From contig NZ_JALDST010000001.1 of NCBI RefSeq assembly GCF_022747945.1, positions 6,758,001 through 6,822,000 on the forward strand: a DNA stretch of 64,000 nucleotides, written 5' to 3'. Both the position numbers and the translations under genes were made by a program. Each line of letters begins with the position of its first letter. Within the stretch, counting starts at the first letter, position 1. Source of the DNA: Micromonospora sp. R77. Lineage in GTDB: Bacteria; Actinomycetota; Actinomycetes; Mycobacteriales; Micromonosporaceae. Positions 41,447 to 62,206 of this stretch are shown piece after piece. The notes beneath the pieces were generated by a model. The model was not told where the DNA came from and made no database searches. It saw nothing but the letters and a program-made list of their open reading frames with translations.

Positions 41447-42685
41447 TCAGTCGGCCAACACGGCCGCCTCGGGCACCTTCTCGTCGCTCGGCTGCCGCTC
41501 GGCCGCCGGCAGCAGCAACTCCAGCAGGAGGATCAGCACCGAGGCGACGGTCAGCGCACCACCGATCAGGAACCCGGCGCGCGCGTCGAACGGCCCCAGC
41601 AGCACACCACCGACCAGGGCACCGAGGGCCACCCCGATGTTGAACGCGGCGGAGTTCGCCGCGAACCCGATCTCGGTGCGACCCGGTGCCACCCGCAGGA
41701 TCTGCGCCTGCGTCGCCATGAAGACCGGCGCGGCGGAGCCGCCCAGCACGGCCAGCAGGATCACGACCGCGACCTGGTTACGGGCCAGCAGGCCGAGGCC
41801 GAGCAGCGCGACCGCCTGCACGCCGACGGTCAGGAACAACGATCCCCGGGGCATCCGGTCCAGCAGTGACCCGACCCCCACCACGCCCGCCGTGCCCGCC
41901 GCGCCGAAGACGAAGAGCATCACCCCGACGGTGTGCTCGGCGAATCCGGAGAGGTCGGTGAGGAAGTCGGTGATGTAGGTGAAGCCGGCGAACATGCCGG
42001 TGACCGAGAGGGCGGTGGTGGCGATGACGATGGCGAACCGGCGACCGTCCGGGTGGGAGCCGAAGGCGCCGTGGCTCTCCTCCGGCCGGGTGGTCGGCAG
42101 GAGCGTCGCCACGACCACGAGGGACACCAGGGCGAGCACGCTGAGCACGAAGAACGGCACCTGCCAGCGGCTGTGCTGGCCGAGCCAGGTGCCGGCGGGA
42201 ACGCCCAGCACCGTGGCCAGCGACCCGCAGACCGACATCACCGCGATGACCCGGCCCCGGCGCTCCGGGGAGAACAGCCCCACCGCCGTCGGGCCGAGGA
42301 CCGCCCAGAACAGCGCCTGGGCGATCGCGGTGGTGACCCGGGCGCCGAAGAGGATTGGATAGGAGCGGACCAGCACCGAGGCGAGCGTGCTGACCACCAG
42401 CACGGCGAGCAGTCCACTCAGGACGTGCCGGCGCGGCATGCGCCGGGTCGCGTACGCCAGGGGCAGGGAGAGCAGCGCGACGGTGAGGCCGTAACCGGTG
42501 ACGAGGAAACCCGCGGACGGCAGGGACACGTCGAGGTCCGCCGAGATGAGACTGAGCAGACCGATCGGCAAGTTCTCGGTGGTGTTGAAGACGAATGCCG
42601 ACAGGGCCAGGGCAGCCAGGACGGTGACCCGGCTCCAGAGCGTTGACCGCATGCGGAGGGAGCTCCTCTCGTGGAATCGATTCAC
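41447..42685 (-). CDS. MFS transporter, cluster exporter
   Basis: A 412-residue major facilitator with 12 hydrophobic segments of the AraJ/drug-exporter type: FNTTENLPIGLLSLISADLD, ARRVTT-like ARVTTAIAQALFWAV (motif C region) and CGSLATVLGVPAGTWLG. GTG 42685 overlaps the thioesterase stop (GTGA), tying it to the NRPS operon; ATG 42652 is the alternative start. It probably exports the cluster product and may confer self-resistance. The first ~10 residues after GTG are not membrane-like, so either start is possible. Confidence 0.85.
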   Translation of the reverse strand: MNRFHERSSLRMRSTLWSRVTVLAALALSAFVFNTTENLPIGLLSLISADLDVSLPSAGFLVTGYGLTVALLSLPLAYATRRMPRRHVLSGLLAVLVVSTLASVLVRSYPILFGARVTTAIAQALFWAVLGPTAVGLFSPERRGRVIAVMSVCGSLATVLGVPAGTWLGQHSRWQVPFFVLSVLALVSLVVVATLLPTTRPEESHGAFGSHPDGRRFAIVIATTALSVTGMFAGFTYITDFLTDLSGFAEHTVGVMLFVFGAAGTAGVVGVGSLLDRMPRGSLFLTVGVQAVALLGLGLLARNQVAVVILLAVLGGSAAPVFMATQAQILRVAPGRTEIGFAANSAAFNIGVALGALVGGVLLGPFDARAGFLIGGALTVASVLILLLELLLPAAERQPSDEKVPEAAVLAD

Positions 42686-43503
42686 GCGCTCGTCACCTGT
42701 CGTCCGCCGTCCAGCACCCGTCGGACCAGCGCACCCATCGCGGTCAGAGCGTCACCACGCCAGATCGTATAGTGATCACCGGTGATCGCGTAGTCGTGCA
42801 GGCCGGCGGCGAGTTCCCGCCAGCGGCCGACGTCCGTCGATGACTCCGTCGCCCGGATCAGCGTCACCGGCCCCGGATAGCCGCCGACCGGCCGCCAGGA
42901 GCCGAGGAGGCGCAGGTGGGCGGCGAAGGGCCGGTAGCGGTCGTGCAGGAATTCGGCGTCGCACTCGGCCGGCAGCACTCCGGCCCGGACGACGGCGGCG
43001 AAGACGTCGTCGGGTCCGGCGTCCTCGGGTGCCCGGGCGAGGGCCGCCCGGATCGGCCCGCGGGGCAGGCCGCCCAGCTCGGCGAGGTCCCGCACCAGCA
43101 GCCGCGCCGCCGTCCCCGGCGGCGGCACGGCGAGCGGGCCGGGTGCCGGCGGGTCGACCAGGATCAGCCCACCGACGGGCACCCCGGCGTCGGCCAGCCG
43201 CCTCGCCAGGTCGTACGCGACGACGGCCCCCATCGACCAGCCCAGCAGCGCCACCGGGCGGCCCGCCCGGTGGTGGTGCAGCGCGGCCAGGTACCGCGCC
43301 GAGTGGGCCGGCACCGAGTCGAGCGGTTCCTCGTCGTTGTGGAAGCCCGGCGCCTCCAAGGCGTAGACGGGCTGCTCGGGGTCCAGCAGCGGCACCAGGG
43401 CCCGATAGCCGTACGGCGATCCGGAGATCGGCGGCGCGCAGAACAGCGGCACCCGGCTGCCGTCCGGCCGCAACGGCAGTACCGGGTCGAAGCTGTCGAT
43501 CAC
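42682..43503 (-). CDS. Stand-alone thioesterase
   Basis: A 273-residue alpha/beta-hydrolase thioesterase of the NRPS/PKS kind. The nucleophile Ser is in GWSMGA, an Asp follows in ILVDPPAPG and the His is in ITGDHYTIW. It resembles integrated type I TE domains (LFCAPPISGSPYGYRALVPLL) rather than type II. GTG 43503 overlaps the stop of the C-A-PCP NRPS at 43500, so it is co-translated and likely releases that module's product or edits misloaded carriers. Because the other NRPS has a TE without Ser, this may be the only functional releasing enzyme. Confidence 0.88.
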   Translation of the reverse strand: MIDSFDPVLPLRPDGSRVPLFCAPPISGSPYGYRALVPLLDPEQPVYALEAPGFHNDEEPLDSVPAHSARYLAALHHHRAGRPVALLGWSMGAVVAYDLARRLADAGVPVGGLILVDPPAPGPLAVPPPGTAARLLVRDLAELGGLPRGPIRAALARAPEDAGPDDVFAAVVRAGVLPAECDAEFLHDRYRPFAAHLRLLGSWRPVGGYPGPVTLIRATESSTDVGRWRELAAGLHDYAITGDHYTIWRGDALTAMGALVRRVLDGGRQVTSA

Positions 43504-46664: not shown

Positions 46665-46765
46665 GGCGGTCCTCCGTCGGTATGTTGAGAAGCGCCGATG
46701 TCGCGGGGTGCTCGGGCGCTGTCGGACCCCCGGCGTCGGGGCGTCGTGATCGGGAAGGCGGGGCA

Positions 46766-47785
46766 ATGGTGCGGGAACCAGTCGCGGAGATCGCTGGGCT
46801 GTTCGACGTGTACCAGAGCGGGGTGGTCTTCCACTGCCTCTGCGCGGTCACCCGGCTCGGCGTGCCCGACCGGCTCGGCGAGGATCCCCGGCCGGTGAGC
46901 GAGGTCGCGGCGGCGGTGGACGCCGACGTCGACGCGCTCCGGCGGGTGCTGCGGCTGCTGGCCGGGCACCAGCTGGTCGAGTTCGACCCCGGCACCGACC
47001 GGGTGAGCCTCACCGGACGCGGGATGCTGCTGCGCCGGGACCATCCGCTGTCGCTCGCCGCGACCTTCGCCACGCTGGGCGTCTCCGATGTGGCGCACCG
47101 GACGGCGGACGCGCTGCGTACCGGGCGGGCGGCCGCTCCGGTGGCGCTCGGGACGGACTTCTGGTCCTTCCTCGCCGCCCGACCGGACCGGCAGGCGGTC
47201 TTCAGCCGGGCGATGGCCGAGCAGGCGCGGCTGCTCTCCCTGCCCTGCGTCGACCTCGTCGACTGGCCCGCCGAGGGGGTGGTCGTGGATCTCGGCGGCG
47301 GTACGGGCGCGCTGCTGGCCGCGGTGCTGGACACCGCGCCCGGGCTGCGCGGCGTGCTGGTGGACCAGCCGCAGGTGCTCGACCGGTCCCGTGCCGCCGT
47401 CGCCGAGCGGGGCCTCGCCGACCGGTGCGAGGTCCGGGCCGGCGACCTGTTCGACCCGGCTCCCGTCGGTGACGTGTACGTGCTGTCGCGGGTGCTGCAC
47501 GACTGGGACGACGAGGCCGTGGTGCGGATCCTGTCCGCCGCGGCGGCCGACGCCCCGGCCGGCGCGCGCCTGGTCGTCTTCGAGGACGTGCTGCCCGAGG
47601 ACGGGTCGGCCTCGGCGGCGCAGGCCTGGGCGGACATCGCGATGATGCTGTTGTACGAGGGTGCCCGCGAACGCACCGCCGAGCAGTACCGCACGCTGCT
47701 GGACCGTGCCGGCTGGCAGTTGACCGAGACGGTGCCGGGACCGCCGGGGATGCACGTCATCGACGCGGTCCGGCGGCCGGGCTGA
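46766..47785 (+). CDS. SAM-dependent O-methyltransferase
   Basis: A 339-residue methyltransferase of the TcmN/CalO6 type. An N-terminal dimerisation winged helix (LFDVYQSGVVFHCLCAVTRL) leads to a Rossmann domain with VVDLGGGTGALLAAVL (SAM loop), and the catalytic region LSRVLHDWDDEAVVRIL with the conserved HDW. These enzymes methylate phenolic or other hydroxyls on small molecules. With a phenylalanine-hydroxylase-type enzyme nearby, O-methyl-tyrosine formation is plausible. Its 3' end overlaps the convergent P450 gene by 29 nt. Confidence 0.88.
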   Translation: MVREPVAEIAGLFDVYQSGVVFHCLCAVTRLGVPDRLGEDPRPVSEVAAAVDADVDALRRVLRLLAGHQLVEFDPGTDRVSLTGRGMLLRRDHPLSLAATFATLGVSDVAHRTADALRTGRAAAPVALGTDFWSFLAARPDRQAVFSRAMAEQARLLSLPCVDLVDWPAEGVVVDLGGGTGALLAAVLDTAPGLRGVLVDQPQVLDRSRAAVAERGLADRCEVRAGDLFDPAPVGDVYVLSRVLHDWDDEAVVRILSAAAADAPAGARLVVFEDVLPEDGSASAAQAWADIAMMLLYEGARERTAEQYRTLLDRAGWQLTETVPGPPGMHVIDAVRRPG

Positions 47786-49019
47786 CGGCGTCGACCACCG
47801 GGTCGAGGACCACGTCCAGCCGTTGCAGGCCGTTGAGGAAGTTGGACGCCAGCCGGTCCGGCTCCGCCACCTCGTGGAACTGCGCGACCTGACCGAGCAG
47901 GGCCGCCAGCACGCAGCGCAGCTCCAGCCGGGCCAGCGCGGCGCCCACGCAGTAGTGCGGCCCACCGCCGAACCCGAGGTGCTGGTTGGGCCGCCGGTCG
48001 ACGAGGAACCGGTCCGGCTCCGGGAAGACCTCCTCGTCCCGGTTGCAGGACGGCAGCCAGACGACGACCCGGTCACCCTCGGCGATGTGCGCGTCGCCGA
48101 GCCTGGTCGGCCTGGTCGCGGTACGCATGGCGTGCCCCGGCGGCGAGGTGTAGCGGAGGATCTCCTCGACCGCGCTGTCCAGCAGTGCCGGGTCCGCGCG
48201 CAGCCGTCGCCACTGCTCGGGGTGACGCGCGAAGGCGAGCACGGCACCGGAGATGGCGTGCGGGGTGGTCTCCAGGCCACCGTTGAGCAGGCCGACGCAG
48301 TTGAGCACGACCTCGTCGTCGGTCAGTGGACGACCGCCGTGCACGGAGTTCGCCAGTGTGGACACGACGTCGTCGCCCGGGTCGGCGCGTCGCTGCTCCA
48401 GCAGCTCGAAGAAGTAGTCGAAGACGCCGGCGTGGGCGGCGGCCCGCTCCGCCGCCGCGGCAGGTGAGGTGTCGGCGTCGTCGAAGCCGGCGGCGGTCAG
48501 CGCGGCCAGCTCGTCCCGGTCCTGCGCCGGCACGCCCATCATGGTGAACAGCACCCAGGACGGCACGAGGAGCGCCAGCTCCGCGACGATGTCGACCGGC
48601 CCGTCCCGGGCCACCAGGTCCCGCAGCCGGCGCTCGACGGTGTCGCGCAGGCCCGGGGCCAGGCCGGCGAGCTGCCGGCCGGCGAACCACCGGGCGTGGG
48701 CGGGGCGCAGCCGCTGGTGGTCCACCCCGTCCGAGACGACCAGCATCCGACCGCTGGCGGCCGCCACCGCCGCGGGGCGCGCGCCCAGGCGCATCCCGCG
48801 GGTCGAGGTGAAGGTCTCCGGCTCCCGCAGCACCTCCCGGCCCGGGCGGTACGCGGTGACCGACCAGAAGCCCTCACCCTCCGGGTCGGTCCAGGCGACC
48901 GGGTGCCTCCGGCGGGCCTCCCGGGTGACCTCCAGGAACCGGTCCCCGGTGAAGAAGTGCGGGTCCGCCAGGTTCACCTCCGACCCGCCCGCGGTGAACA
49001 GTGGAGTGCGATCGGTCAC
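47757..49019 (-). CDS. Cytochrome P450
   Basis: A 420-residue bacterial class I P450. The I-helix motif is GGLETT (247-252), ExxR is EEILR (285-289) and the heme loop FGGGPHYCVGAALARLE holds Cys357 as ligand. The I-helix lacks the usual acid-Thr pair in perfect form, having Glu-Thr-Thr. It needs ferredoxin partners encoded elsewhere. Position in the cluster suggests hydroxylation or cross-linking of the amino acid or product. GTG 49019 is preceded by GGAGGG. Confidence 0.92.
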   Translation of the reverse strand: MTDRTPLFTAGGSEVNLADPHFFTGDRFLEVTREARRRHPVAWTDPEGEGFWSVTAYRPGREVLREPETFTSTRGMRLGARPAAVAAASGRMLVVSDGVDHQRLRPAHARWFAGRQLAGLAPGLRDTVERRLRDLVARDGPVDIVAELALLVPSWVLFTMMGVPAQDRDELAALTAAGFDDADTSPAAAAERAAAHAGVFDYFFELLEQRRADPGDDVVSTLANSVHGGRPLTDDEVVLNCVGLLNGGLETTPHAISGAVLAFARHPEQWRRLRADPALLDSAVEEILRYTSPPGHAMRTATRPTRLGDAHIAEGDRVVVWLPSCNRDEEVFPEPDRFLVDRRPNQHLGFGGGPHYCVGAALARLELRCVLAALLGQVAQFHEVAEPDRLASNFLNGLQRLDVVLDPVVDAVSPAAGPRR

Positions 49020-49381
49020 AATTCCCTCCGAGTTTCCGCCATTCAGGTAATGCAATTATCGCCGTTCCCCCGCGATGCCGGGAACGGCTTTTTCTCGCAT
49101 TCTTCCACCCACAGCCACTAGCAATTCCACAGAGACCTCCTACAATTGATTCATCGGGCACCTGACAATCCGATAGGCGACGGGTGAGCGGCAGTCACGC
49201 GCAACGTCGCCCGTGGCACGGCAACGCCACGCCGACCGTCGCGACACGACGACGACCGCCGCACCGGCGCATCCGGCAGCAGCCCCGGCCCGGTCCGCCG
49301 GCCACGAGCCGGCCGAGGGCGCGACACGCGGGACCGGCCCGGCCCGGACGCACGATCGACAAGTGGGAGAGGGAAGCCACC
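49020..49381. promoter_or_regulatory. Divergent promoter region, 362 nt
   Basis: Separates the leftward P450 from the rightward aromatic amino acid hydroxylase. It has AT-rich patches (TAATGCAATTATCGCC near 49048; ACAATTGATTCATC near 49142) that are unusual for this genome and fit two promoters. No coding frame is supported. Confidence 0.5.
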
Positions 49382-50263: not shown

Positions 50264-50280
50264 GCAACGGGCGCGGCCCC

Positions 50281-50320: not shown

Positions 50321-50336
50321 CCGGTCGCCCGCCGCG

Positions 50337-51299: not shown

Positions 51300-51547
51300 C
51301 GCTTCAGCACGTGCTCGACCGTCTGCCGGATCGTCGCCGAGCGACCCCCGGTGAATCCCATCAGGTCGAACCGGCGGCCGGTGCGGTCCTCCAGGAACGA
51401 CAGGTAGGCCACCATGCCCATCGAGTCCAGCAGGCCGGTGGCGAGCAGCGGGGTGTCCGCGGTCACCGCGACCCCGGTCTCACCGTCGCTCCAGTTCTCG
51501 ATCCACTCGATCAGCTCCTGGTGCAGTTTCTCGGTGTCGACTTCCAT
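51296..51547 (-). CDS. Stand-alone acyl/peptidyl carrier protein
   Basis: An 83-residue carrier with the phosphopantetheine Ser in GLLDSMGMVAYL. The N-terminal helix VDTEKLHQELIEWIENW and C-terminal helix TIRQTVEHVLKR are typical. ATG 51547 has GGGAGG 5 nt upstream and overlaps the 3' end of the amidohydrolase paralogue by about 70 nt. Being discrete and beside an AMP-dependent ligase, it is likely loaded with a fatty or amino acyl group that the desaturase and other enzymes modify. Confidence 0.9.
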   Translation of the reverse strand: MEVDTEKLHQELIEWIENWSDGETGVAVTADTPLLATGLLDSMGMVAYLSFLEDRTGRRFDLMGFTGGRSATIRQTVEHVLKR

Positions 51548-52487: not shown

Positions 52488-53926
52488 GCGATCGCCACGG
52501 CCGCGCCGCGCCGCTCGGCGTAGTGGGCGGCAGCGGCCGTCCGGCTCAGCTTCAGGTTCGCGGTGAGGAAGGCCGGATCGCTGCGCAGCGGCCTCGCGCT
52601 GAACAGCACCGAGGTGAGGCGGAACTGGTCGTCCACCCGCTCGTTGACCTTGCCGATCCCCTCGACGATCCCGCTGCGCTGGGTGTCGCCGTCGTCCGTC
52701 GGCGTGACGATCGCGGCGAGACCGTGCGAGTTCGGGGTGGGCACCACGATGAGGTCCGCAACGCCGGGGACGTCGACGAAGTGCGCCTCCACCTCGCCCG
52801 GATGCAGCTTGCGGCCACTGGCCAGGGCGATGACGTCCTTCTTGCGACCGCGCAGGGTCAGGTAGCCGTCGGCGTCCAGGCGGCCGTAGTCGCCCGTGAC
52901 GATGGTGCCGTCCGGCCGGAACGTCTCCTCCGCCGTCTCGCGGGGCACCCCGAAGTAGCCGAGGCTGAGCGGTGCCGGCCGGTGGATCAGCAGTTCCCCG
53001 TCCGGCAGCAGGGTCACCGCGTCGGGGTCGATCAGCTTGCCGACGGTGCCCGGGCGGTTCTCCGCCAGGGTGTTCCAGCCGATCATCCCGCTCTCGGTCA
53101 TCCCGTACGCCTCCAGCAGCGGCACGCCCTGGGCGGCGTAGGCGTCGAGCGTCTCCCGCCGGATCGGTGCCATGCCGGTGATCGCGAAGCGCAGTCGACC
53201 GCCGAGGAACTCGCCCAGTGGCGTTCCCCCGCCGGAGGTGGCGGCGAGTTGCCGTGCGGCGTCGTAGAAGATCGGTGGTCCGATCAGGAACGTGGGGTGC
53301 TCGGCCCGGAGCGCGGCGAAGACCCGCTGGTAGGGCGCGAGCACCAGGTCGGCGCCCGTCCACAGGCAGCAGTAGACCGACAGGCGCTGCTGGTAGTTGG
53401 CCAGGGGCAGGAAGATCAGGTGCCGGTCCCGCGGGGAGATGTGGAAACTGTCGATGAACCGGCCGATGACGTACTCGGTCCCCTTGCGGCTGATCCGCAG
53501 GCCCTTCAGGGCGCCGCTGGTGCCCGAGGAGTAGACGAGGCTGTGCAGGTCGGGGTCCACCTCCGGGGCCGGCCGGGCGGGGTCACCGGGGTGCGTCGTG
53601 TCCTCCAGCACCAGCAGCGCGAGCCCGTGCCGCCGGGTGAACGCCGGTACGTCCTCGATCGGGAAGTCGTCCGGGAACGCCTGGATCACCGCACCGACGA
53701 GCAGCGCGCCGAGGTCCCAGCTCACCCAGTCGATGCTGTTGGCCGCGCGCAGCCCCACCACGTCACCCGGCCGGACGCCGGCGGCCCGCAACTGCTCCGC
53801 CCGCCGTCCGGCGTGCTCCGCCAGCTCGGCGTGGCTGATCTCCCGGCGGTCGCCGGCGGCGTCGATCTCGACGACCACCGCCCCGGTGTTCTGCCGGTAG
53901 CGCTCGATCAGGCTGGTCAGCTTCAC
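52484..53926 (-). CDS. AMP-dependent acyl ligase (acyl-ACP/CoA synthetase)
   Basis: A 480-residue ANL-superfamily ligase: LHSLVYSSGTSGALKGLRIS (P-loop-like A3), AYGMTESGMIGW (A5), VTGDYGRLDADGYLTLRGRKK (A7-A8) and the catalytic Lys in TANLKLSR. It is shorter than NRPS A domains with linkers and resembles long-chain acyl-CoA or acyl-ACP synthetases, not the amino-acid type. GTG 53926 overlaps the aminotransferase stop. Probable role is adenylation of a carboxylic acid and transfer to the carrier at 51296-51547. Confidence 0.88.
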   Translation of the reverse strand: MKLTSLIERYRQNTGAVVVEIDAAGDRREISHAELAEHAGRRAEQLRAAGVRPGDVVGLRAANSIDWVSWDLGALLVGAVIQAFPDDFPIEDVPAFTRRHGLALLVLEDTTHPGDPARPAPEVDPDLHSLVYSSGTSGALKGLRISRKGTEYVIGRFIDSFHISPRDRHLIFLPLANYQQRLSVYCCLWTGADLVLAPYQRVFAALRAEHPTFLIGPPIFYDAARQLAATSGGGTPLGEFLGGRLRFAITGMAPIRRETLDAYAAQGVPLLEAYGMTESGMIGWNTLAENRPGTVGKLIDPDAVTLLPDGELLIHRPAPLSLGYFGVPRETAEETFRPDGTIVTGDYGRLDADGYLTLRGRKKDVIALASGRKLHPGEVEAHFVDVPGVADLIVVPTPNSHGLAAIVTPTDDGDTQRSGIVEGIGKVNERVDDQFRLTSVLFSARPLRSDPAFLTANLKLSRTAAAAHYAERRGAAVAIA

Positions 53927-55620
53927 GATCGTCCCCTCGCGTCGATGGCGCCGGCCGGCTGGCGCAGGCGCGCCAGCAGGAGGTCCAGGCGGTCGTCCAG
54001 GACCCGGCCGAGGTGGCCGCCCAGCATCGGCTCGTACGGGCCGGTGCCGGCGTCCCACTCGAGCCGGACGGTGAGCGTGCTCCCCCCGGCCCCGTCGGAC
54101 CGCCAGCGGACCGACCGCTCCAACCGGTGCCACAGCCAGTCGGGCTCGGCGCGGAGCACGACACCGTCCGGTCCCACCTCCACCTGTTCGGTCCAGCGGG
54201 CCGGCCGGAACCCGACCATCCCCGCGAAGTCGGGCTCGACGGTGGCCCCGGCGGTCGCCTCCGGATCGGCGGCGAACGGGTCGAGCAGGTGCGGCCGGGC
54301 CCGCAGCAGCGTGGCGAGTTCGTCCGGGCTCAGCGCGACGCCCACGGTCCGCTTCATCGGGGAGAGCCGGACCGGCACCGGCCCGGCCGCGCCGTCCAGG
54401 GTGTCCAGCACCTCGTCGAGCACGGTCAGCCCGGCGAGCAGGTCGTCGGTGGAGATCACCATGGGCGGCTGCACCCGCAGCACCCGGTTGTTGTAGAGCG
54501 AGTACGTCGAGGTGACCCGGCGGTGCAGCAACTCACCGAGCACCATCCCGCCCAGTGACTCGTCGTGGAACTCCAGGCCGTGCATCATGCCGAGGCCGCG
54601 GTGGGCGGAGAGCAGCCGCGGATGGCGGGCCACCAGCGCGGCCAGCCGTTCCTCGATCAGTGCGCCCTTGGCGACCACGGACTCGACGAAGCCGTCCGCG
54701 GTGGCGATCTCCAGCACCTCCAGGCCCACCCGGCAGGCCAGCGGGTTGCCGCCGAGGCTGGAGCCGAACGTGGACGGTTGGTCGCGCAACGACTCCCAGA
54801 CCCGGGCGGTGCCCAGCACGGCGGAGATCGGCACGATGCCGCCGCCGAACGCCTTCCCGATGCACATCAGGTCCGGGCTCACGCCGAAGAGTCGGTGCGC
54901 GAAGAGGGCACCGCACCGGCCGAAGGCGGTCTGCATCTCGTCGAGGATGAGCAGCGCGCCGCGCTCGTCGCAGAGCCGCCGCACCTCGGCGAGGTAGCCC
55001 TCGGGCGGCGGCACCACCCCGGCCTCCGCCTGCACCGGCTCCAGCAGCACCGCCGCCGTGTCGGCGCCGACCGCCCGGTCGAGGGCGTCCAGGTCACCGA
55101 ACGGCACCTGCTGGAAGCCGGGCATGAACGGGCGGAACACCGCGGCGTGCTCCGGGCGACCGGACGCGCTGAGGGTGGCGAACGTCTTGCCGTGGAAGCA
55201 GTCGACGGCGGTGACGAAGCCGGGGCGTCCGGTCGCCGCCCGGGCCAGCTTCAGCGCGTTGTCGATGCTCTCGCCCCCGCCGTTGGCCAGGTAGGCGTAC
55301 GGCAGTCGCCCCTCGGTGAGCTCGGCGAGGCGGGCGGTCAGCCGGATCTGCCCCTCCTCGAACATGATCTTCGTGCTGTTGAGCCGACCGCTGGCCAGCT
55401 GCTCCTCGACGGCCCGGACCAGACGCGGGTGCGAGTAGCCGAACGACTGGTTCCCGTACTGGTCGAACAGGGCCAGCAGCCGCCCGCCCTCCTCGTCGGC
55501 GACGAAGCTCTCCGTACCCTCGCCCTGGACGCCGCAGCCCATGACGAACGACATCGTGGCGTAGGTCGGATGGTTGTGCGCCGCCTTGGCCTCGGCGAGT
55601 CGCTGTCGGTGTGATCGCAC
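53923..55620 (-). CDS. Class III PLP aminotransferase with C-terminal extra domain
   Basis: A 565-residue protein. Residues 1-430 are a class III (ornithine/GABA-type) aminotransferase: YLANGGGESIDNALKLARAA, ILDEMQTAFGRCG and the Schiff-base Lys in LMCIGKAFGGG. The last ~110 residues (VEPDFAGMVGFRPARWTEQV, WHRLERSVRWRSDGAGGSTL, RVLDDRLDLLLARL) resemble an SRPBCC/START-type small-molecule-binding domain and are unusual in this family. GTG 55620 follows GAGGGGG. It could add or remove a terminal or beta amino group on an acyl chain; the fused domain may present the substrate. Confidence 0.85.
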   Translation of the reverse strand: MRSHRQRLAEAKAAHNHPTYATMSFVMGCGVQGEGTESFVADEEGGRLLALFDQYGNQSFGYSHPRLVRAVEEQLASGRLNSTKIMFEEGQIRLTARLAELTEGRLPYAYLANGGGESIDNALKLARAATGRPGFVTAVDCFHGKTFATLSASGRPEHAAVFRPFMPGFQQVPFGDLDALDRAVGADTAAVLLEPVQAEAGVVPPPEGYLAEVRRLCDERGALLILDEMQTAFGRCGALFAHRLFGVSPDLMCIGKAFGGGIVPISAVLGTARVWESLRDQPSTFGSSLGGNPLACRVGLEVLEIATADGFVESVVAKGALIEERLAALVARHPRLLSAHRGLGMMHGLEFHDESLGGMVLGELLHRRVTSTYSLYNNRVLRVQPPMVISTDDLLAGLTVLDEVLDTLDGAAGPVPVRLSPMKRTVGVALSPDELATLLRARPHLLDPFAADPEATAGATVEPDFAGMVGFRPARWTEQVEVGPDGVVLRAEPDWLWHRLERSVRWRSDGAGGSTLTVRLEWDAGTGPYEPMLGGHLGRVLDDRLDLLLARLRQPAGAIDARGRS

Positions 55621-55639
55621 GGTCCCCCTCTGGGCGGTG

Positions 55640-56278
55640 TCAGGCCGCGGCGGTGGCCGCGTAGCCGTCGTAGTCGGCGAAGAAGTACTGCAGGACGCGG
55701 TTGTCCCGGTTCTCGGGCGCACGGCACCGCCGGGCGGCGGCCTCGACGTCGAGGACCCCCACGACGCTCAGTGGCGCGTTGTGGAACCGTTCGTCCGGGT
55801 ACGGCTCCCCCACCGCGACGAACCCGACCTGCAGGTAGAACGGGCGCAGCCCACCGGTGTCGTCGGCGAAGAAGTCACCGAGCACGTGGGTGGCGCGGTG
55901 CCGGGCGACGCTGTGCACCAGCGCCGCCCGCATCAGGGCCATGCCGACCGACTGCTGCCGGATCCGCGGCAGCGTCATCAGGTGGCCGAACTCCACCAGC
56001 CGGTTGCCGGGCCTGCGCAGGAAGGCGAGGTCCACGACGTCGTCGCACGGCAGGCCGATCTCGCCGTCGGGCACCACCTTGATGGTGCCGACCGCTTCCG
56101 TCCCGTCCTCGGCGAGCAGGTACGTGGCGTGCCCGTCGAACCGGTCGAAGGTGGCCGCCGTGTCCGCCACGTCCACCAGCCGGGACTGGTCCTGCACATA
56201 CACCGCCTCCCGCAGCCGTCGCACCGCGTCCCGGTCCGCCGGGGAGGTCGCCACCCGGAAGCACGTCACCTCGGCCAT
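55640..56278 (-). CDS. GNAT/N-acyl-amino-acid-synthase-like protein
   Basis: A 212-residue protein of the autoinducer-synthase/FeeM-like branch of GNAT folds: REAVYVQDQSRLVDVADTAA, ATYLLAEDGTEAVGTIKVV, and FGHLMTLPRIRQQSVGMALM, then LRPFYLQVGFVAVGE. FeeM-type enzymes transfer an acyl group from acyl carrier protein to an amino acid, whereas ordinary GNATs use acetyl-CoA. With a carrier protein and acyl ligase in the operon, the former is attractive but is inference. It overlaps the desaturase stop (TGATG). Confidence 0.65.
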   Translation of the reverse strand: MAEVTCFRVATSPADRDAVRRLREAVYVQDQSRLVDVADTAATFDRFDGHATYLLAEDGTEAVGTIKVVPDGEIGLPCDDVVDLAFLRRPGNRLVEFGHLMTLPRIRQQSVGMALMRAALVHSVARHRATHVLGDFFADDTGGLRPFYLQVGFVAVGEPYPDERFHNAPLSVVGVLDVEAAARRCRAPENRDNRVLQYFFADYDGYAATAAA

Positions 56279-57228
56279 CAGCCCCGCACCAGCTTTCGGA
56301 AGAAGTCCAGGTATCCGGAGTGGAAGTGCTTCAGCCGGGGCCGCACCTCGGCGTGCAGCGCCGGCAGTCGTTCGATCGGCAGGTTGGGCATGAGGTGGTG
56401 CTCGACGTGGAAGTTGTTGCCGTTGGTGAACCACGTCATCAGGCGGTTCGACCGGATGGTGCGGGTGTTGGCGAAGGCGTCCCGGCTGAGGGTCTCGCAG
56501 CGGAAGTGCTCCGGCAGCTCGATGAGCGCGTGCACCGGCCCGGCGACCAGCAGCAGCGGGAGCAGCCACAGCCACAGCACGACCGGCTCGCGCAGCACGA
56601 CGGAGAGCACCGTCAACGCCAGCAGCGCCCCCAGGATGACGTGGTAGTCGCGGCGGATGCCCCGGGAGGTGTGCGCCGACTCGCCGGGGTAGTCCCGGCG
56701 CGCCACGGCGCGGGCGGCGCCGACCAGGAACTGCGGGTAGAAGTGGAGCATCGTGAACCGGACCACCCAGTCCAGCCCGACCCGCCAGCGGGACCGCGCG
56801 CCGTCCGCGCCGTACTGGTTGCCGTAGTCGAAGAACTCCCGGTTCTGCGGGGTCCCCAGGTCCCGGTGGTGCCGCAGGTGGGTCGCCCGGTAGGCGGCGA
56901 ACGAGATCAGCATGGGGACGCCGAGCACGATGCCGGCGGTCCGGTTGGCCCGCCGGTTGCGGAACCCGAGACTGTGCAGCGTCTGGTGCTGCAACTCGGC
57001 GGCGTGGGCGAACATGCAGCCCAGCAGGACCACCCCGGCCACCCGGCTCCAGGGCGCCGGATGCAGGGCGAGCGCCGCTCCGCCGGCGGTCAGCGCCGCC
57101 CAGAGCGCCAGCTTCGCGGCGAAGGTGCGGTTGCTGATCCTGGTACGCAGGTGCCCGAACTCGCCCCGCACCGCAGTCCGGCCGCCGGGGCCGGGACGTC
57201 GGGGCTGTCGGTCATCGATGGTTTTCAT
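56278..57228 (-). CDS. Membrane fatty-acid desaturase
   Basis: A 316-residue di-iron membrane enzyme. The three histidine clusters are complete: HAAELQHQTLH, HLRHHRD and HVEHHLMP. Four hydrophobic segments flank them. Such enzymes desaturate acyl chains, and some make terminal alkenes or alkynes on carrier-bound acids. The gene overlaps the NRPS stop by 17 nt and feeds into the operon containing the acyl ligase and carrier, so its substrate is probably the cluster's acyl chain rather than membrane lipid. Confidence 0.88.
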   Translation of the reverse strand: MKTIDDRQPRRPGPGGRTAVRGEFGHLRTRISNRTFAAKLALWAALTAGGAALALHPAPWSRVAGVVLLGCMFAHAAELQHQTLHSLGFRNRRANRTAGIVLGVPMLISFAAYRATHLRHHRDLGTPQNREFFDYGNQYGADGARSRWRVGLDWVVRFTMLHFYPQFLVGAARAVARRDYPGESAHTSRGIRRDYHVILGALLALTVLSVVLREPVVLWLWLLPLLLVAGPVHALIELPEHFRCETLSRDAFANTRTIRSNRLMTWFTNGNNFHVEHHLMPNLPIERLPALHAEVRPRLKHFHSGYLDFFRKLVRG

Positions 57229-60200
57229 CTGCTCGCCACTCTCTGCCGCTGACCGCTCCCACCCTCGGGGCGTCCGCGGCGGTCGCGGTCAGGTCGTCCA
57301 GAACGGATTGCAGGATCGCCCCGAGGCGGGCCACCGGCTCCGGGTCGAAGACGTCGGCCGAGGCGGAGCCGAGCTCCGGCCCGGTCACGACGACGGTGTC
57401 GTCGTCGTACGCCGGTTCGCCCAGGTCCTTCTCCGGCACCAGCACCACCCTCCCGGCCGGTGCGCCGGCGGCCGAGAGCGCGGCGGCGAGCCGGCGGGCG
57501 AGACCGGCCCCGTCGCCCACCCCGACCAGGTGGTACGGGCCGGGCAGACCGCTCGCGCGGATCCGCTCGACGTGCGCGCCGACCTCGTCGTCGGTCACCG
57601 GCAGCGGCGTGGCCAGGCCGTAGAGCGGGCGGTCCGGCAGGTGCGGCGCGAGGCGCAGGTGGATCCAGGGATCGGTGCCGGGCGCCGCGACACAGAACAG
57701 CGGCTCCGCACCACCGGCCGGGCGCAGCGGCACCAGCGGACCCCGGCCCCAGTCCGCCCCGACCACGGCGGCGATCTCGTCGGCCACCGCCGTGACGGTC
57801 AGGTTCGCGAACAGCGCCCGGACGTCGAGTTTCACCCCGAACCGGCGGCGCAGCCGGCCGACGAGCCGGGTCGCCGACAGCGAGTGGCCGCCCAGTTCGA
57901 AGAAGCTGTCCTGCGGGGCCACCGTGGGGATCTGGAGCACCTCACCGAAGGCGAGCGCGACCGCCTCCTGCACCGGACCGGACGGTGACCGGCGGGTCGG
58001 CATGCTCTCGCCGCGCAGGTCCGGCAGGGCCCGCCGGTCCAGCTTGCCGCTGCGGGTCAGCGGCAGGTCGTCGAGGACGCCCAGCAGCTGGGGTACGAGG
58101 TGGGACGGCAGCTGCGTGCCCAGCGCCCGGCGCAGCTCACGCGGGTCCACCCGGGCACCGGGGGCGGGCACCACGTAGCCGAGCAGCCGGCGGTCGCCGG
58201 TCGGGTCCTCGTGGACGGTGGCGGCCGCCCGGGCCACCCCGGGCAACCGGACCAGGGCCGCCTCCACCTCACCGAGTTCGATCCGGAACCCGTTGACCTT
58301 CGTCTGGCCGTCGTCACGGCCGACGAAGAGCAGCTGGCCGTCGGCGTTCCACCGCACCAGGTCCCCGCTGCGGTACATCCGGGCACCGGGCCCGGCGAAG
58401 GGATCGGGCAGGAACCGCCGGCCGGTCAGCTCCGGCTGGTTCAGGTAGCCCAGCGCGACGCCGGCACCGCCGATGTACAACTCCCCCACCGCGCCGGTCG
58501 GGACCGGCCGCAACCGCTCGTCGAGCACGTGGACGTGCAGGTTCCGCAGCGGCGTACCGATCGGTGGGGCGGTGGCGTCCGCCGGGGTGAGCGGCGGACT
58601 CATCGCGGTGGAGATGGTGCCCTCGGTCGGGCCGTACCCGTTGATCAGCCGGCAGACCGGGGCGAAGCGCTCCACCACGGTGGGCGCCGCCGCCTCCCCG
58701 ACGATGGAGACCGTCGCGCCGGGGGGCAGCTCCGCCGGGCTCAGCTGCGCGAGGACCGACGGCACCAGCACCAGGTCGTTCACCCGGCGTTCGTGCAGCA
58801 GCTCGGCGAGGCCGGGGCCCGGGACGAGTTGGTCCTGGGGTACGCCCACCAGCGTGCCGCCCAGGAAGATCGACTGGGTCATCTCCCCGACGAAGGCGTC
58901 GAAGCTCGGTGAGGCGAACTGGAGGGTCCGGCGGCCCGGCCCCGGCCCGAGCCGGTCGACCATCGCCTGGGTCACGTTCACCACGCCGCGGTGGGCCACC
59001 ATCACCGCCTTCGGGGTGCCGGTGGAACCCGACGTGTAGATCAGGTAGGCGGGCGACGCGGGGACGAGCGGCGCGCGTCGGTCGGCGTCGGTGAGCCGCC
59101 CCGGCGACACCGCGGCCAGCGCCGCCCCGGTCTCCGGGTCGTCCAGCACCAGCCGCTCGGCGGTTCCCGCCGGGACGTCCGCGGTCTCCGTCCGCAGCAG
59201 CAGCACGACCGGTGCCGCGTCGGCCACCATCAACGCGATCCGCGCCGCGGGCGCCGTGGTGTCCAGCGAGAGGAAGGCCGCACCGGTCTTGAGCACCGCG
59301 AGCGCCGAGACGATGAGGTCCGGGCAGCGGGGCAGGGCGAGACCGACCGTCCGCCCCGGCCCGGCGCCCCGGGCGACCAGCAGCCGGGCCAACCGGTTCG
59401 CGCGTTCCTCCAGCGCCCGGTACGTCCATACGGAGTCCCCGTAGTCCAGCGCGGGCGCGTCCGGGGTCCGGTCTGCCCACTCCTCCACCATCTGGTGCAC
59501 GCCGATGTCGGGGATGTCGCGGCTCGGACCGGTGCCGAGCGTCCGCAGGTGGCGCAGTTCCGCCTCGTCCACCAGCGGCAGGTCCACCAGCGGGGTCCCC
59601 GGGTCCGCGTTCGCGGCCCCGTCGAGGAAGAAGATCAGCCGCCGCAGGTGGGCCTCGAGTTCGCCGGTCGAGTAACCGCCCGCGTCGACGTCGAGGATCA
59701 GCTCGACGGCACCGCCGGGACGGTGGAAAAAGATGGCGGAGAAATCCTCGATGTCGGGTGTCGACAGCGTCCGGAGTTCGGCCCGCAGGCCGGCGAAGTC
59801 CAGTGCCGTCTCCGAGCCCATCACGTTCACGATCGGCCCCCACAGGGCCCGTCCCGTACCGGTCAGGCCCAGGTCGGCGATCATGCCGGTGGTGGGGTAA
59901 CGGCTGTGCAGCAGGGCTTCGCGCAGGTCCAGGGCCACCGAGGCGAGGAACTCCCCGAGCGTCGCCCCCGCGGTGGGGCGCAGCCGCAGCGGCATCCCGT
60001 TCGTGGTCATGCCGGGCGCGGCCTGCTCGGCGCGACTGAGCCGGGCGGTGACCGGCATCCCGACCACCACGTCGTCGGCACCGGTCAGCCGGGCCACGTA
60101 CGCGGTCACCAGCCCGACGGCCAGGTCGGACCAGCCGACGCCGAGGCGGGCCGCGGCGGTCCGCAGCCGGGCCAGCAGGTCGGCGGAGAGGTCCGCGCGC

Positions 60201-60889
60201 CGCCGCAGGACCCGGCCGGAGCGGGCGTACCGGCGGCCGGCGAGCCGGACCGGCTCCGGCAGGTCCCGCAGGCGGTCGGCCCAGAAGAGCCGGTCCTGTT
60301 CGTGCCGGGGGCCGGCGCGGTAGGCGGCGTCCGCGTCGACGAGGACCCGGTAGGGCGGGAACGGCCGGCCCACCTCGGCCGGCGCGGTGGCGGGCGACGA
60401 GGCGAAGGCGGTGTAGAGCTCGGCGGTACGGCGGTGCAGCCGGGCCAGGCTCCAGCCGTCGACCACCAGGTGGTGGACCCGGCGGTAGAGCACGTGGTGC
60501 CGGGGCCCGAGGCGCAGCAGCGCGGTCGTGCACAACGCGGGGCCGAAGACGTCGACCGGGGCGTCGGTGTCCGCCGCCATCCAGTCCGCCGCGGCCCGCT
60601 GCGGATCCGCCTCCGCGCTGACGTCCACGAAGCGCAGCGGGGTGCTGGCCGCCGGGTCCACGTACTGCACGGGCCCGTCCGGGGTGGCCCGGAAGCGCAG
60701 TCGCAACGCCTCCGCCTCCTGCTCGACCTGACGGTGCGCGGCGGCCAGGGCGGTGCGGTCCAGCGGGCCGAACAGGTCGATGCGGTCGCTGATAATGCTC
60801 GACGCGTGGCCGGAGCTGAGCGCGTCGGCCAACCACACCCCCGACTGGGCGGGCAGCAGCGGCCACCGGCCCGGCTCGATCGTGGACAC
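57212..60889 (-). CDS. Nonribosomal peptide synthetase, C-A-PCP-degenerate TE
   Basis: A 1,225-residue EntF-like module. The C domain (1-430) has an intact HHLVVDGWS. The A domain (~450-960) has LIYTSGSTGTPKA, NGYGPTEGT, YRSGDLVRW and the catalytic Lys in RSGKLDRR; its pocket reads roughly D-A-G-L-S-V-G-I-S, not matched to a known substrate. The carrier Ser is in FFELGGHSLSAT. The C-terminal TE-like region (from about 1070) is short, and its nucleophile motif GxSxG is GVGDG, so Ser is Asp and it should not release product normally. GTG 60889 follows GGGGAGG. First gene of the long operon. Confidence 0.92.
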   Translation of the reverse strand: MSTIEPGRWPLLPAQSGVWLADALSSGHASSIISDRIDLFGPLDRTALAAAHRQVEQEAEALRLRFRATPDGPVQYVDPAASTPLRFVDVSAEADPQRAAADWMAADTDAPVDVFGPALCTTALLRLGPRHHVLYRRVHHLVVDGWSLARLHRRTAELYTAFASSPATAPAEVGRPFPPYRVLVDADAAYRAGPRHEQDRLFWADRLRDLPEPVRLAGRRYARSGRVLRRRADLSADLLARLRTAAARLGVGWSDLAVGLVTAYVARLTGADDVVVGMPVTARLSRAEQAAPGMTTNGMPLRLRPTAGATLGEFLASVALDLREALLHSRYPTTGMIADLGLTGTGRALWGPIVNVMGSETALDFAGLRAELRTLSTPDIEDFSAIFFHRPGGAVELILDVDAGGYSTGELEAHLRRLIFFLDGAANADPGTPLVDLPLVDEAELRHLRTLGTGPSRDIPDIGVHQMVEEWADRTPDAPALDYGDSVWTYRALEERANRLARLLVARGAGPGRTVGLALPRCPDLIVSALAVLKTGAAFLSLDTTAPAARIALMVADAAPVVLLLRTETADVPAGTAERLVLDDPETGAALAAVSPGRLTDADRRAPLVPASPAYLIYTSGSTGTPKAVMVAHRGVVNVTQAMVDRLGPGPGRRTLQFASPSFDAFVGEMTQSIFLGGTLVGVPQDQLVPGPGLAELLHERRVNDLVLVPSVLAQLSPAELPPGATVSIVGEAAAPTVVERFAPVCRLINGYGPTEGTISTAMSPPLTPADATAPPIGTPLRNLHVHVLDERLRPVPTGAVGELYIGGAGVALGYLNQPELTGRRFLPDPFAGPGARMYRSGDLVRWNADGQLLFVGRDDGQTKVNGFRIELGEVEAALVRLPGVARAAATVHEDPTGDRRLLGYVVPAPGARVDPRELRRALGTQLPSHLVPQLLGVLDDLPLTRSGKLDRRALPDLRGESMPTRRSPSGPVQEAVALAFGEVLQIPTVAPQDSFFELGGHSLSATRLVGRLRRRFGVKLDVRALFANLTVTAVADEIAAVVGADWGRGPLVPLRPAGGAEPLFCVAAPGTDPWIHLRLAPHLPDRPLYGLATPLPVTDDEVGAHVERIRASGLPGPYHLVGVGDGAGLARRLAAALSAAGAPAGRVVLVPEKDLGEPAYDDDTVVVTGPELGSASADVFDPEPVARLGAILQSVLDDLTATAADAPRVGAVSGREWRADENHR

Positions 60890-61135
60890 GTTGTGGCCTC
60901 CCCGTGGCGTGCGGTCCGGTCCGACAGACTGACCAAGCAATTAGCACGCAGGGAAGGGCGCCCACCAACGAGCATTTACCCGCGCTATTGACGTACCTGC
61001 AAATGCGCCCCTGGATTTGCCCCTCGTCGACGCCGCGAAGTGTGATTGTGCGAGTTAATAAGTTGTTGTTAAGTTCCACAAGCGCCGATGTCTGGCTATG
61101 CTTCGCGGCGGTGGCATCTGACGGGGAGGGGTGCC
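60890..61135. promoter_or_regulatory. Divergent control region of the NRPS operon
   Basis: 246 nt between the NRPS operon and the transposase-like gene. It is much more AT-rich than its surroundings. GCAAAT-N10-ATTTGC (60999-61020) is an inverted repeat. Near 61052-61073 lie the related copies TTAATAAGTT and TTGTTAAGTT. TATGCT around 61096 is a possible -10 for the rightward gene. These are good candidate sites for the flanking regulator-like protein. Confidence 0.55.
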
Positions 61136-62206
61136 GTGCCCGATGAGTGCGTGCCGGAAAGTTTCGTCAAGGAGTTCCGTCTCCTGGAGCCGTATCTGGA
61201 CGAGCGTCAGCGTCGGCTGGTGCTGGCCGCCCGGGCCGTCTCGCTCGGTCAGGGTGGTGCCCGCCGGATCGCCCGGGCGGTCGGCGTGCACCCGCACACC
61301 GTCGTCAAGGGCATCGAGGAGCTCGAGGGCCCGGAACAGGTCCACGGCAACCTGCGCCGGCCGGGCGGCGGGCGCAAGAAGATCACCGAGAGCAACCCGG
61401 ACGTGCTGCCGGCCCTGCTCGACCTCCTGGAACCTGGTCGCGCCACCGCACCGCACCTGCAGTGGACGACCTCGTCCACCCGCGCGCTCGCCGCTGCCCT
61501 GAAGCGACGCGGCCACCGCATCTCCGCCTGGTCGGTGTCGAACCTGTTGCGGCAGAGCGGCTTCCGCCTCTTTCCCGGCTCCCGTCCGGCCACCCACCAC
61601 CGACGGCTCGACCGGCGGGAGCAGTACGGGCGGGTGAACGACCAGGTGGGACGGTGGCTGGCGGCCGGGCAGCCGGTGGTCACGGTCAGCGTCCGGCCGG
61701 ACGACCCGGCCGCCCGGCCCGCCGACCCGGTCCCGGTCGACCCGGGCCGGCACCGCCGGTCCGACCCGGCGCGTGGTCACGGGGCGGCCGACCCGGTCGC
61801 CGACGAGCCGGACCGCACCGCCGAGGACGCCCGGTTGACGCTGGCCGCAGGCACGATCCGCACCTGGTGGGACCGGCAGTCGACATGGTGCAGTCAGCTC
61901 CTGGTGGTGGTCGACAGCACGGTGTGGACGGCGGGGAGCCGCTCCGTGCGCCGCGCCATGACCCGGCTCGCGGACGAGACCGGCGCGCTCATCTCCGTCT
62001 GCTATCTGCCGCCGTTGACCATGCGCTGGACGCGGATCCACGAGTTCGTCCGCTCCAGCATGGTCATGCAGCGGCCCGGCCGGGCGCCCGACAACCACCA
62101 GGTCGAGCTCGGCGTCCTCGCCGACGCCGGTACCGGGGGCCAGCACGCCGCCCCGGTCCTGGACGGACCGCCGGCGTGGAACTACACGGTCGGCTCGGCC
62201 GCGTGA
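61136..62206 (+). CDS. ISAzo13-family transposase-derived protein, catalytically degenerate
   Basis: A 356-residue protein that follows ISAzo13 transposases at its N-terminus: LLEPYLDERQRRLVLAARAV, IARAVGVHPHTVVKGIEELE (HTH) and RRPGGGRKKITE. The catalytic core is altered. The first-Asp region is VTVSVRPDDP instead of VDTKKK, the second-Asp region is LVVVDSTVWTAGS, and the IEH motif is IHE. The usual ~120 residues around the first Asp are shortened. There are no terminal inverted repeats or target duplications at the gene edges. GTG 61136 has GGGGAGGGG 5 nt upstream. It may be a DNA-binding protein domesticated as cluster regulator, or an old relic. Confidence 0.75.
   Translation: MPDECVPESFVKEFRLLEPYLDERQRRLVLAARAVSLGQGGARRIARAVGVHPHTVVKGIEELEGPEQVHGNLRRPGGGRKKITESNPDVLPALLDLLEPGRATAPHLQWTTSSTRALAAALKRRGHRISAWSVSNLLRQSGFRLFPGSRPATHHRRLDRREQYGRVNDQVGRWLAAGQPVVTVSVRPDDPAARPADPVPVDPGRHRRSDPARGHGAADPVADEPDRTAEDARLTLAAGTIRTWWDRQSTWCSQLLVVVDSTVWTAGSRSVRRAMTRLADETGALISVCYLPPLTMRWTRIHEFVRSSMVMQRPGRAPDNHQVELGVLADAGTGGQHAAPVLDGPPAWNYTVGSAA

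What the first reader, a model, noticed from the sequence alone, without database searches (positions are those of the whole stretch)
41447..62206. Compact, unassigned NRPS-acyl biosynthetic cluster
Seen: two single-module NRPSs, a free TE, a free carrier, an acyl ligase, a membrane desaturase, a FeeM-like GNAT, a class III aminotransferase, two amidohydrolases, an aromatic hydroxylase, a P450 and an O-methyltransferase, tightly linked by overlapping start and stop codons and bounded by a strong terminator and a divergent regulator-like gene. I do not recognise this combination from a characterised pathway.
Basis: partly seen in the sequence, partly recalled or inferred. Interest (0 to 1): 0.8.

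Follow-up and report, generated by a model that had tools for sequence, protein, structure and literature searches.

The report
Uncharacterised acyl-dipeptide biosynthesis gene cluster
A real and conserved set of 14 genes in an actinomycete looks built to make a small acid-capped dipeptide from a modified aromatic amino acid, using a seven-gene starter-unit kit whose chemistry we could not match to a described pathway.

Summary
Window 41447-60889 carries 14 genes: two single-module NRPSs, free TE, free ACP, acyl ligase, FA-desaturase-family membrane protein, FeeM-like GNAT, class III aminotransferase, two Amidohydro_2 proteins, biopterin-dependent aromatic hydroxylase, P450, O-methyltransferase and MFS exporter. 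The divergent 'regulator' is an ISAzo13-type transposase. All 14 genes are collinear in Actinoplanes sp. DH11 and Micromonospora rubida; a seven-gene core (DES-GNAT-AT3-LIG-AH2-ACP-AH1) keeps its order in 10 of 10 loci with AH1 identity of 60% or more. NRPS1's C domain resembles starter types, NRPS2's elongating types. AH2 lost metal ligands but is under purifying selection. The aminotransferase has a SRPBCC-like C-terminal domain. The hydroxylase has Y/S...S where 13 of 13 same-class relatives have F...G. A ligase-ACP-amidohydrolase trio recurs in 6 of 7 further loci read. Best reading: an acylated aromatic dipeptide; the acyl unit and the amidohydrolases' job are inferred. MIBiG and antiSMASH were not available; ten paper searches listed no match.

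The parts
41398..41429 (.). perfect 14-bp hairpin with 4-nt loop beyond the MFS gene; probable terminator without T-run
   Evidence: sequence, fold (-42.9 kcal/mol on + strand, -40.8 on - strand, 56 nt)
41447..42685 (-). MFS exporter
   Evidence: PF07690 171 bits; NCBIfam transporter hits, all shown below cut-off
42682..43503 (-). free thioesterase with GWSMG nucleophile motif, GTG start overlapping the NRPS2 stop
   Evidence: PF00975 84 bits
43500..46664 (-). NRPS2, C-A-T; C closest to chain-elongating C domains; A code DVGLVIVVAK
46766..47785 (+). O-methyltransferase (start inferred)
   Evidence: PF00891 130 bits; nearest solved 6c5b, MmcR, CalO6
47757..49019 (-). cytochrome P450
   Evidence: PF00067 100.5 bits
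49382..50263 (+). biopterin-dependent aromatic amino acid hydroxylase with Y...S in place of F...G in the presumed substrate pocket (start inferred)
   Evidence: PF00351 230 bits
50337..51299 (-). AH1, Amidohydro_2 with complete HxH/H/H/D metal residues
   Evidence: PF04909 115.6 bits
51296..51547 (-). free acyl carrier protein (GLLDSM motif; no Pfam match)
   Evidence: conserved in 10 loci
51480..52487 (-). AH2, metal-ligand-deficient Amidohydro_2 paralogue (HxH to HxT, D to C)
   Evidence: PF04909 134.3 bits
52484..53926 (-). acyl-AMP ligase, probable acyl-ACP ligase
   Evidence: PF00501 124.7 bits; Tyr at the position where amino-acid-activating A domains have the Asp that binds the alpha-amino group (F, Y or N in 8 relatives)
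53923..55620 (-). class III aminotransferase (start inferred) fused to a C-terminal SRPBCC/START-like domain (53923-54360)
   Evidence: PF00202 267.8 bits
55640..56278 (-). FeeM-type GNAT acyltransferase
   Evidence: PF21926 60.4 bits over cut-off 27; only solved relative found: FeeM 2g0b, E 8.9e-6
56278..57228 (-). DES, membrane protein of the FA_desaturase family (presumed di-iron oxygenase/desaturase)
   Evidence: PF00487 125.7 bits; best NCBIfam GntB 71.6 bits, below cut-off 380; no solved relative at E 1
57212..60889 (-). NRPS1, starter-like C, A, T plus truncated TE remnant; A code DAGLSVGISK
61088..62206 (+). ISAzo13-type transposase at the right border (not part of the pathway)

Best explanation
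The cluster makes and exports a small acyl-dipeptide. The ligase charges the free ACP with a carboxylic acid that lacks an alpha-amino group. The membrane di-iron-type protein, the aminotransferase-SRPBCC fusion and the FeeM-type GNAT oxidise, aminate and N-acylate it (or its amine partner), and the AH1/AH2 pair acts on the resulting acyl group, for example by removing or rearranging an amide. The starter-like C domain of NRPS1 joins this acyl unit to a meta-hydroxylated aromatic amino acid made by the biopterin hydroxylase; NRPS2 adds a second residue; the free TE releases the product; P450 and O-methyltransferase decorate it; MFS exports it. Shown: gene content, conservation, C-domain similarity, residue changes. 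Inferred: every substrate, the reaction order, and what AH1/AH2 do.
For: 14-gene collinearity in L010 and L030 and the seven-gene core in 10 of 10 loci with AH1 at 60% identity or more; an NRPS1-like C domain without its own A domain before DES in 6 Streptomyces loci, tying the core to that C domain (confirmed by Pfam in L012); starter-like C by nearest solved relatives against elongating C in NRPS2; FeeM domain above cut-off; possible gene fusions GNAT-DES (P0181) and AT3-LIG (P0142); pairwise identities of six core genes correlate at 0.90-0.98; NRPS1 A code DAGLSVG[IV]SK in 4 of 4 readable loci with the hydroxylase, DVWQ/DMWQ type in 6 of 6 loci where it was not found; hydroxylase pocket differs from 13 of 13 same-class relatives.
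Against: No product, expression or enzyme data. GNAT could serve an amine other than the starter. The ligase shows no decisive substrate signal (25 of 91 NCBIfam hits shown, all under their cut-offs). The hydroxylase passes the NCBIfam model for phenylalanine 4-monooxygenase (261.6 against 247), which speaks for ordinary para-hydroxylation. P0142 is marked partial and P0181 is a single sequence. Loci without the hydroxylase were seen only within 10 kb on each side, and L014 is cut short. Codes were mapped through alignments, with positions recalled, and differ somewhat between the two mappings.
Confidence: 0.5

Rival explanations
1. Protecting-group reading: ligase and ACP supply an acyl group that the GNAT puts on an amine; DES and the aminotransferase work on the N-acylated substrate (the SRPBCC domain holding the acyl group); AH1/AH2 then take the acyl group off, as in acetylated arginine biosynthesis or the removable aminoacyl groups of butirosin and vicenistatin. 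The deprotected amino acid is a building block, not an acyl cap.
For: LIG-ACP-AH occurs as a trio in very different clusters. Of seven loci with ligase and amidohydrolase that I annotated at least in part, six hold an acyltransferase-like gene: GNAT in one frame with a haem-oxygenase-like domain (L020), GNAT plus KASIII-like (L023), KASIII-like (L019, L027), a BtrH_N match below its cut-off (L054) and a relative of that protein (L028, itself without a Pfam match); L021 does not. AT3 is nearest to putrescine and acetylornithine aminotransferases. PMC11284099 (passages read) describes protection with amidohydrolase removal in vicenistatin.
Against: The starter-like C domain next to the core suggests an acyl donor rather than a free amino acid. 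No acyltransferase seen in L021; L022 is too short to tell; L029 has no ACP in the gap. GNAT and KASIII-like genes are common, and no random control was made.
Confidence: 0.25
2. Terminal-alkyne or modified fatty-acyl starter: ligase, membrane desaturase and ACP form a JamABC-like triad giving an unsaturated acyl-ACP; the other genes tailor it.
For: The same three functional types in one conserved operon; FA_desaturase family membership.
Against: DES is nearer to the arginine hydroxylase model GntB (71.6 bits) than to the fatty acid desaturase models DesA and DesB (28.7 and 20.2 bits), all under their cut-offs; does not explain the aminotransferase, GNAT or amidohydrolases. JamABC itself is recalled, not compared.
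Confidence: 0.12
3. A known pathway already in MIBiG that our tools could not see.
For: MIBiG could not be searched; most subscription papers are not held.
Against: Ten paper searches listed no such cluster (four of them found no paper at all), and relatives carry only generic names where a name is shown among the 120, 7 and 120 rows.
Confidence: 0.13

Closest known systems
FeeM N-acyl amino acid synthase with its ACP (fee cluster; cluster recalled)
   Same: GNAT matches PF21926 above cut-off and FeeM 2g0b is the only solved relative found; an ACP is encoded nearby
   Different: here tied to NRPS modules, an aminotransferase fusion and an amidohydrolase pair
Phenylalanine 3-hydroxylase of uridyl peptide antibiotics (Phe3H/PacX)
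   Same: biopterin hydroxylase in a peptide cluster with the usual Phe and Gly of the pocket replaced; Ser at the presumed T202 position, and the T202S mutant keeps 80% meta product (PMC7027792, passages)
   Different: Tyr (or Ser) instead of Cys and Ser instead of Thr; passes a phenylalanine 4-monooxygenase model
GntB arginine gamma-hydroxylase
   Same: best NCBIfam match of DES
   Different: 71.6 bits against a cut-off of 380
Initiation modules with starter-type C domains (CDA synthetase I, EntF, ObiF1)
   Same: C domain of NRPS1 scores high against these
   Different: donor carrier and acyl unit appear to be encoded by an unassigned seven-gene kit
Butirosin/vicenistatin carrier-protein pathways with a removable protecting group
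   Same: dedicated ligase, free ACP, acyl transfer and amide hydrolase logic (vicenistatin: PMC11284099, passages; butirosin largely recalled)
   Different: no homology of the window's enzymes to these was tested; here a hydrolase with a metal-deficient partner

Membership tests
FeeM-type N-acyl amino acid synthase | FeeM domain above Pfam cut-off | tested here: met
   PF21926 60.4 bits, cut-off 27; 2g0b E 8.9e-6
FeeM-type N-acyl amino acid synthase | acyl-ACP dependent N-acylation of an amino acid | not testable with these tools
   needs assay
Phenylalanine 3-hydroxylase (Phe3H) | Cys and Thr at the C187/T202 positions | tested here: not met
   Y...S in 4 and S...S in 1 of 5 cluster proteins; signature from PMC7027792. 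Positions were matched by motif and the 15-residue spacing; no Phe3H sequence was aligned
Ordinary phenylalanine 4-hydroxylase | Phe and Gly at the same two positions | tested here: not met
   13 of 13 controls have F...G, 0 of 5 cluster proteins do
Ordinary phenylalanine 4-hydroxylase | NCBIfam equivalog NF008877 cut-off | tested here: met
   261.6 bits against 247
GntB arginine gamma-hydroxylase | NCBIfam equivalog score at least 380 | tested here: not met
   71.6 bits
Metal-dependent Amidohydro_2 hydrolase (AH1) | HxH, two further His and Asp ligands | tested here: met
   window: all five; 10 relatives: HxH, first further His and Asp in 10 of 10, exact LGHGG motif of the second in 7 of 10, the other three not inspected. 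Ligand roles recalled
Metal-dependent Amidohydro_2 hydrolase (AH2) | HxH, two further His and Asp ligands | tested here: not met
   second His and Asp lost in the window and all 10 relatives, first His also lost in 8 of these; Asp replaced in 64 of 120 listed search hits, including the first 49 ranked
Starter condensation domain (NRPS1) | closest to chain-initiating C domains, intact HHxxxDG | tested here: met
   7c1k and kin (recalled as the rhizomide starter C), CDA synthetase I, EntF, ObiF1 and 1l5a (recalled as VibH) lead the list; HHLVVDG. No C-domain tree was built
SRPBCC/START fold (AT3 C-terminal domain) | fold match of a reasonably confident model | tested here: met
Known MIBiG cluster | same gene order and known product | not testable with these tools
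   MIBiG not held
JamABC-type terminal alkyne cassette | acetylenase activity on acyl-ACP | not testable with these tools
   no reference sequence compared; DES best model is GntB

The most novel reading that the evidence does not exclude
Acyl ligase-ACP-amidohydrolase is a cross-phylum, undescribed carrier-protein module that is combined with interchangeable acyltransferases and O2-dependent oxygenases; in actinomycetes it grew into a seven-gene kit with an active/metal-deficient amidohydrolase pair and an aminotransferase-SRPBCC fusion that makes a new type of NRPS starter or building block.
Probability: 0.4. Interest if true: 0.72.

Novelty: new variant of a known kind. Interest (0 to 1): 0.52.

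Why it matters
The core keeps its order across three named genera (Actinoplanes, Micromonospora, Streptomyces), and AH2 relatives are also named from Streptosporangium and Kitasatospora, so one solved product would help explain many unassigned clusters. The amidohydrolase pair, one member without metal ligands yet conserved, and the aminotransferase-SRPBCC fusion are testable enzymology. An aromatic hydroxylase subgroup with an altered pocket could be useful for biocatalysis.

Tried and rejected
Regulator at 61088-62206: rejected, transposase. Minus-strand ORFs 46579-47760, 49151-50536 and 49140-49721: rejected as spurious (no Pfam match); the real genes there are on the + strand. Enamidonin/olenamidonin link: PMC11204786 (passages) has no occurrence of amidohydrolase, aminotransferase or desaturase in its main text; its gene table is in a supplement that I did not see, so the link is not excluded. 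Arginine hydroxylase reading for DES: left open, below cut-off. Plasmid collection: DES relatives in two Burkholderia records and an AH relative in Nonomuraea; no annotation was available in the two regions fetched, and the Burkholderia locus shares only DES and adenylation/NRPS-like similarity. 2-Oxoglutaryl-ACP ligase AmcH: sub-threshold hits in L023 and L022; not among the 25 of 91 rows shown for the window ligase. Fold families absent from the lists are not excluded. Distribution: AH2 at E 1e-40 in 3 of 300 genomes of the family (own included); at E 1e-100 in 1 of 394 of the class, the own genome alone. Rows dropped: of 30 loci, nine (L031-L039) are remote or short amidohydrolase matches; no ligase match was found in any of the nine, and they are left out of the trio count. 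L023-L027 have a ligase in the locus but I did not read them for an ACP between ligase and amidohydrolase. A motif scan for ACPs was uninformative and was replaced by reading the gaps by eye.

My own early AH2 coordinates (51532-52487) were 17 residues short at the C-terminus; the full gene is 51480-52487. Searches and the scripts used the short form. The ligase query and in the scripts began 12 codons downstream of the start now given (53926); the AT3 query began 15 codons upstream of the start now given (55620), and family scans of AT3, GNAT and ligase used longer open reading frames.
Full report
WHAT IS THERE. The window lies at 6758001-6822000 of a 7.07-Mb contig. Pfam scans confirm 13 of the 14 genes listed in 'parts'; the 14th, the 83-aa carrier, gave no Pfam match and is recognised by its motif and conservation. 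On the minus strand, NRPS1, DES, GNAT, AT3, ligase, AH2, ACP and AH1 run in one direction, and NRPS2, TE and MFS in a second run; 8 of 9 junctions within these two runs overlap. Between them the biopterin hydroxylase (+), P450 (-) and O-methyltransferase (+) alternate. The right border is a transposase, found once in this genome, followed by ROK and argininosuccinate-lyase-like genes. A 14-bp hairpin lies beyond MFS on the left.

CONSERVATION. One pattern-based scan of the genome collection (84,980 species) with AH1 gave 30 loci. The ten loci with AH1 at 60% identity or more (L010-L018, L030) all hold DES-GNAT-AT3-LIG-AH2-ACP-AH1 in this order and orientation: 10 of 10. Two of them, Actinoplanes sp. 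DH11 (L010) and Micromonospora rubida (L030), hold all 14 genes in the same order and orientation as the window. Streptomyces mashuensis (L011) and S. silaceus (L017) also hold hydroxylase and P450; L017 has an OMT relative elsewhere and L011 showed none in the stretch held. In six Streptomyces loci (L012-L016, L018) an NRPS1-like C domain precedes DES and no hydroxylase was found in the stretch held; in L012 Pfam shows that C domain alone in its ORF and, after AH1, an A-methyltransferase-T-C-A-T protein. Pairwise identities of six core genes across 11 loci correlate at 0.90-0.98, as expected of genes inherited together; shared ancestry of the strains also contributes. The cluster is rare: 3 of 300 genomes of the family, own included, and 1 of 394 of the class, the own genome alone, at a stricter limit.

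ASSEMBLY LINE. The NRPS1 C domain scores best against 7c1k (194 bits), CDA synthetase I (166), EntF (148), ObiF1 (134) and 1l5a 'amide synthase' (116), which I recall as chain-initiating domains (7c1k as the rhizomide starter C, 1l5a as VibH), far ahead of teixobactin Txo2 (83). The NRPS2 C domain is nearest to Txo2 (267) (that query carried some 60 residues of the A domain). NRPS1 is therefore the likely first module, fed by an acyl carrier. Its C-terminal TE is a remnant: the nucleophile motif reads GVGDG in the window and L010, where the domain is truncated, GVGLG in a longer domain in L030, GWSFG at the edge of L017, and the domain is absent in L011. The free TE keeps GWSMG. The A codes are DAGLSVGISK (NRPS1) and DVGLVIVVAK (NRPS2) (code positions recalled); I know no assigned substrate for either (recall, no table consulted). 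NRPS1's code recurs as DAGLSVG[IV]SK in the 4 loci with the hydroxylase where it can be read (window, L010, L011, L030), against DVWQ/DMWQ types in the six others. The ligase has Tyr where amino-acid-activating A domains have the Asp that binds the alpha-amino group; eight relatives have Phe, Tyr or Asn there.

HYDROXYLASE. At the two pocket positions that separate meta- from para-hydroxylation, Phe3H has Cys and Thr where Phe 4-hydroxylases have Phe and Gly; the T202S mutant still gives 80% meta product (PMC7027792, passages read). The five cluster enzymes have Tyr...Ser (4) or Ser...Ser (1); 13 of 13 other Biopterin_H proteins have Phe...Gly. These 13 are the loci returned from 118 genomes of the class, of which 18 had a match, own included (14 loci returned, one of them the window's own; four matches were not fetched). 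Against the meta reading, the enzyme passes the NCBIfam model for phenylalanine 4-monooxygenase (261.6 against 247), and no Phe3H sequence was aligned; altered regiochemistry is an inference from residues.

AMIDOHYDROLASE PAIR. AH1 keeps all metal residues in the window; in the ten relatives HxH, the next His and the Asp are kept in 10 of 10, and the exact LGHGG motif in 7. AH2 has lost the second His of HxH and the Asp in the window and 10 of 10 relatives (Cys in FGTCWP), and the first His too in 8 of them. Of the 120 proteins listed for AH2 (of 514 found), 50 have the full set, 64 lack the Asp (43 Cys, 21 other), and the 49 best-ranked all lack it. dN/dS of AH2 is 0.115-0.205 in four pairs, against 0.095-0.295 for AH1 in the same pairs: a maintained partner, not a decaying copy. 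A catalytic Cys and a scaffold role are both open.

A WIDER MODULE. Outside the core, a ligase and an AH1-like protein lie in one locus in L019-L029 (11 of 11) and L054, but in none of the nine remote loci L031-L039. Reading by eye the gap between the two in seven loci where they are neighbours, a carrier-like protein stands there in six (Lysobacter L019, Rhodanobacter L020, Algicola L021, Pyrinomonadaceae L022, Streptomyces L028, Nonomuraea L054) and not in L029. Neighbours differ: haem-oxygenase-like protein (L021), GNAT in one frame with a haem-oxygenase-like domain plus a 2OG oxygenase (L020), PhyH oxygenase plus KASIII-like (L023, L027; L023 also a GNAT), KASIII-like (L019), TauD, GMC oxidoreductase and a sub-threshold BtrH_N protein (L054), with relatives of these in L028, whose BtrH-like protein has no Pfam match itself. 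Together with a single GNAT-DES fusion (P0181) and an AT3-ligase fusion marked partial (P0142), this suggests a ligase-ACP-hydrolase unit that is combined with an acyltransferase and an O2-using enzyme. The pattern was assembled from loci chosen by AH1 similarity, without a random control.

LITERATURE AND NOVELTY. Ten searches of 5.39 million open papers listed no paper that describes this gene set, judged by titles, abstract starts and passages; four of them found no paper at all, so the terms may have been too strict. Papers opened: PMC11284099, PMC10367076, PMC7027792, PMC11204786 and PMC10127204, passages only. Protein names in the 120, 7 and 120 rows shown of three homologue searches are generic where given. 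MIBiG, antiSMASH and most subscription journals were not available, so 'unassigned' is supported but not proven.

VERDICT. A real, conserved, probably functional acyl-dipeptide cluster with an unassigned starter kit: a new variant of a known kind. The specialist surprise lies in the hydrolase/metal-deficient pair, the aminotransferase-SRPBCC fusion and the travelling ligase-ACP-hydrolase trio.

Noticed in passing
window 34612-35640 (-): Sigma-70-family protein with a C-terminal SnoaL-like domain (regions 2 and 4 plus SnoaL_2).
   Followed up: no
window 40321-41301 (-): ORF whose C-terminal third matches OsmC, just left of the cluster.
   Followed up: no
window 62672-63977 (-) and on to L009: ROK-family and argininosuccinate-lyase-like genes right of the transposase.
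   Followed up: no
L054 and L028: A second cluster type in Nonomuraea gerenzanensis and Streptomyces rhizosphaerihabitans shares TauD (77%), GMC oxidoreductase (78%), a BtrH_N-like protein (48%; below Pfam cut-off in L054, no match in L028) and the ligase-ACP-amidohydrolase trio.
   Followed up: partly
L053: Burkholderia cenocepacia replicon with a 50% DES relative near two adenylate-forming enzymes, an Orn/DAP/Arg decarboxylase-like and a KASIII-like gene.
   Followed up: partly
L020 10537-12222: Rhodanobacter GNAT joined in one frame to a haem-oxygenase-like (Haem_oxygenas_2) domain beside AH1, with a nicotianamine-synthase-like gene upstream of the ligase.
   Followed up: partly
NRPS1 C-terminus in window, L010, L011, L017, L030: A series that looks like TE decay: intact motif (L017), nucleophile lost (L030), truncated (window, L010), absent (L011).
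   Followed up: partly
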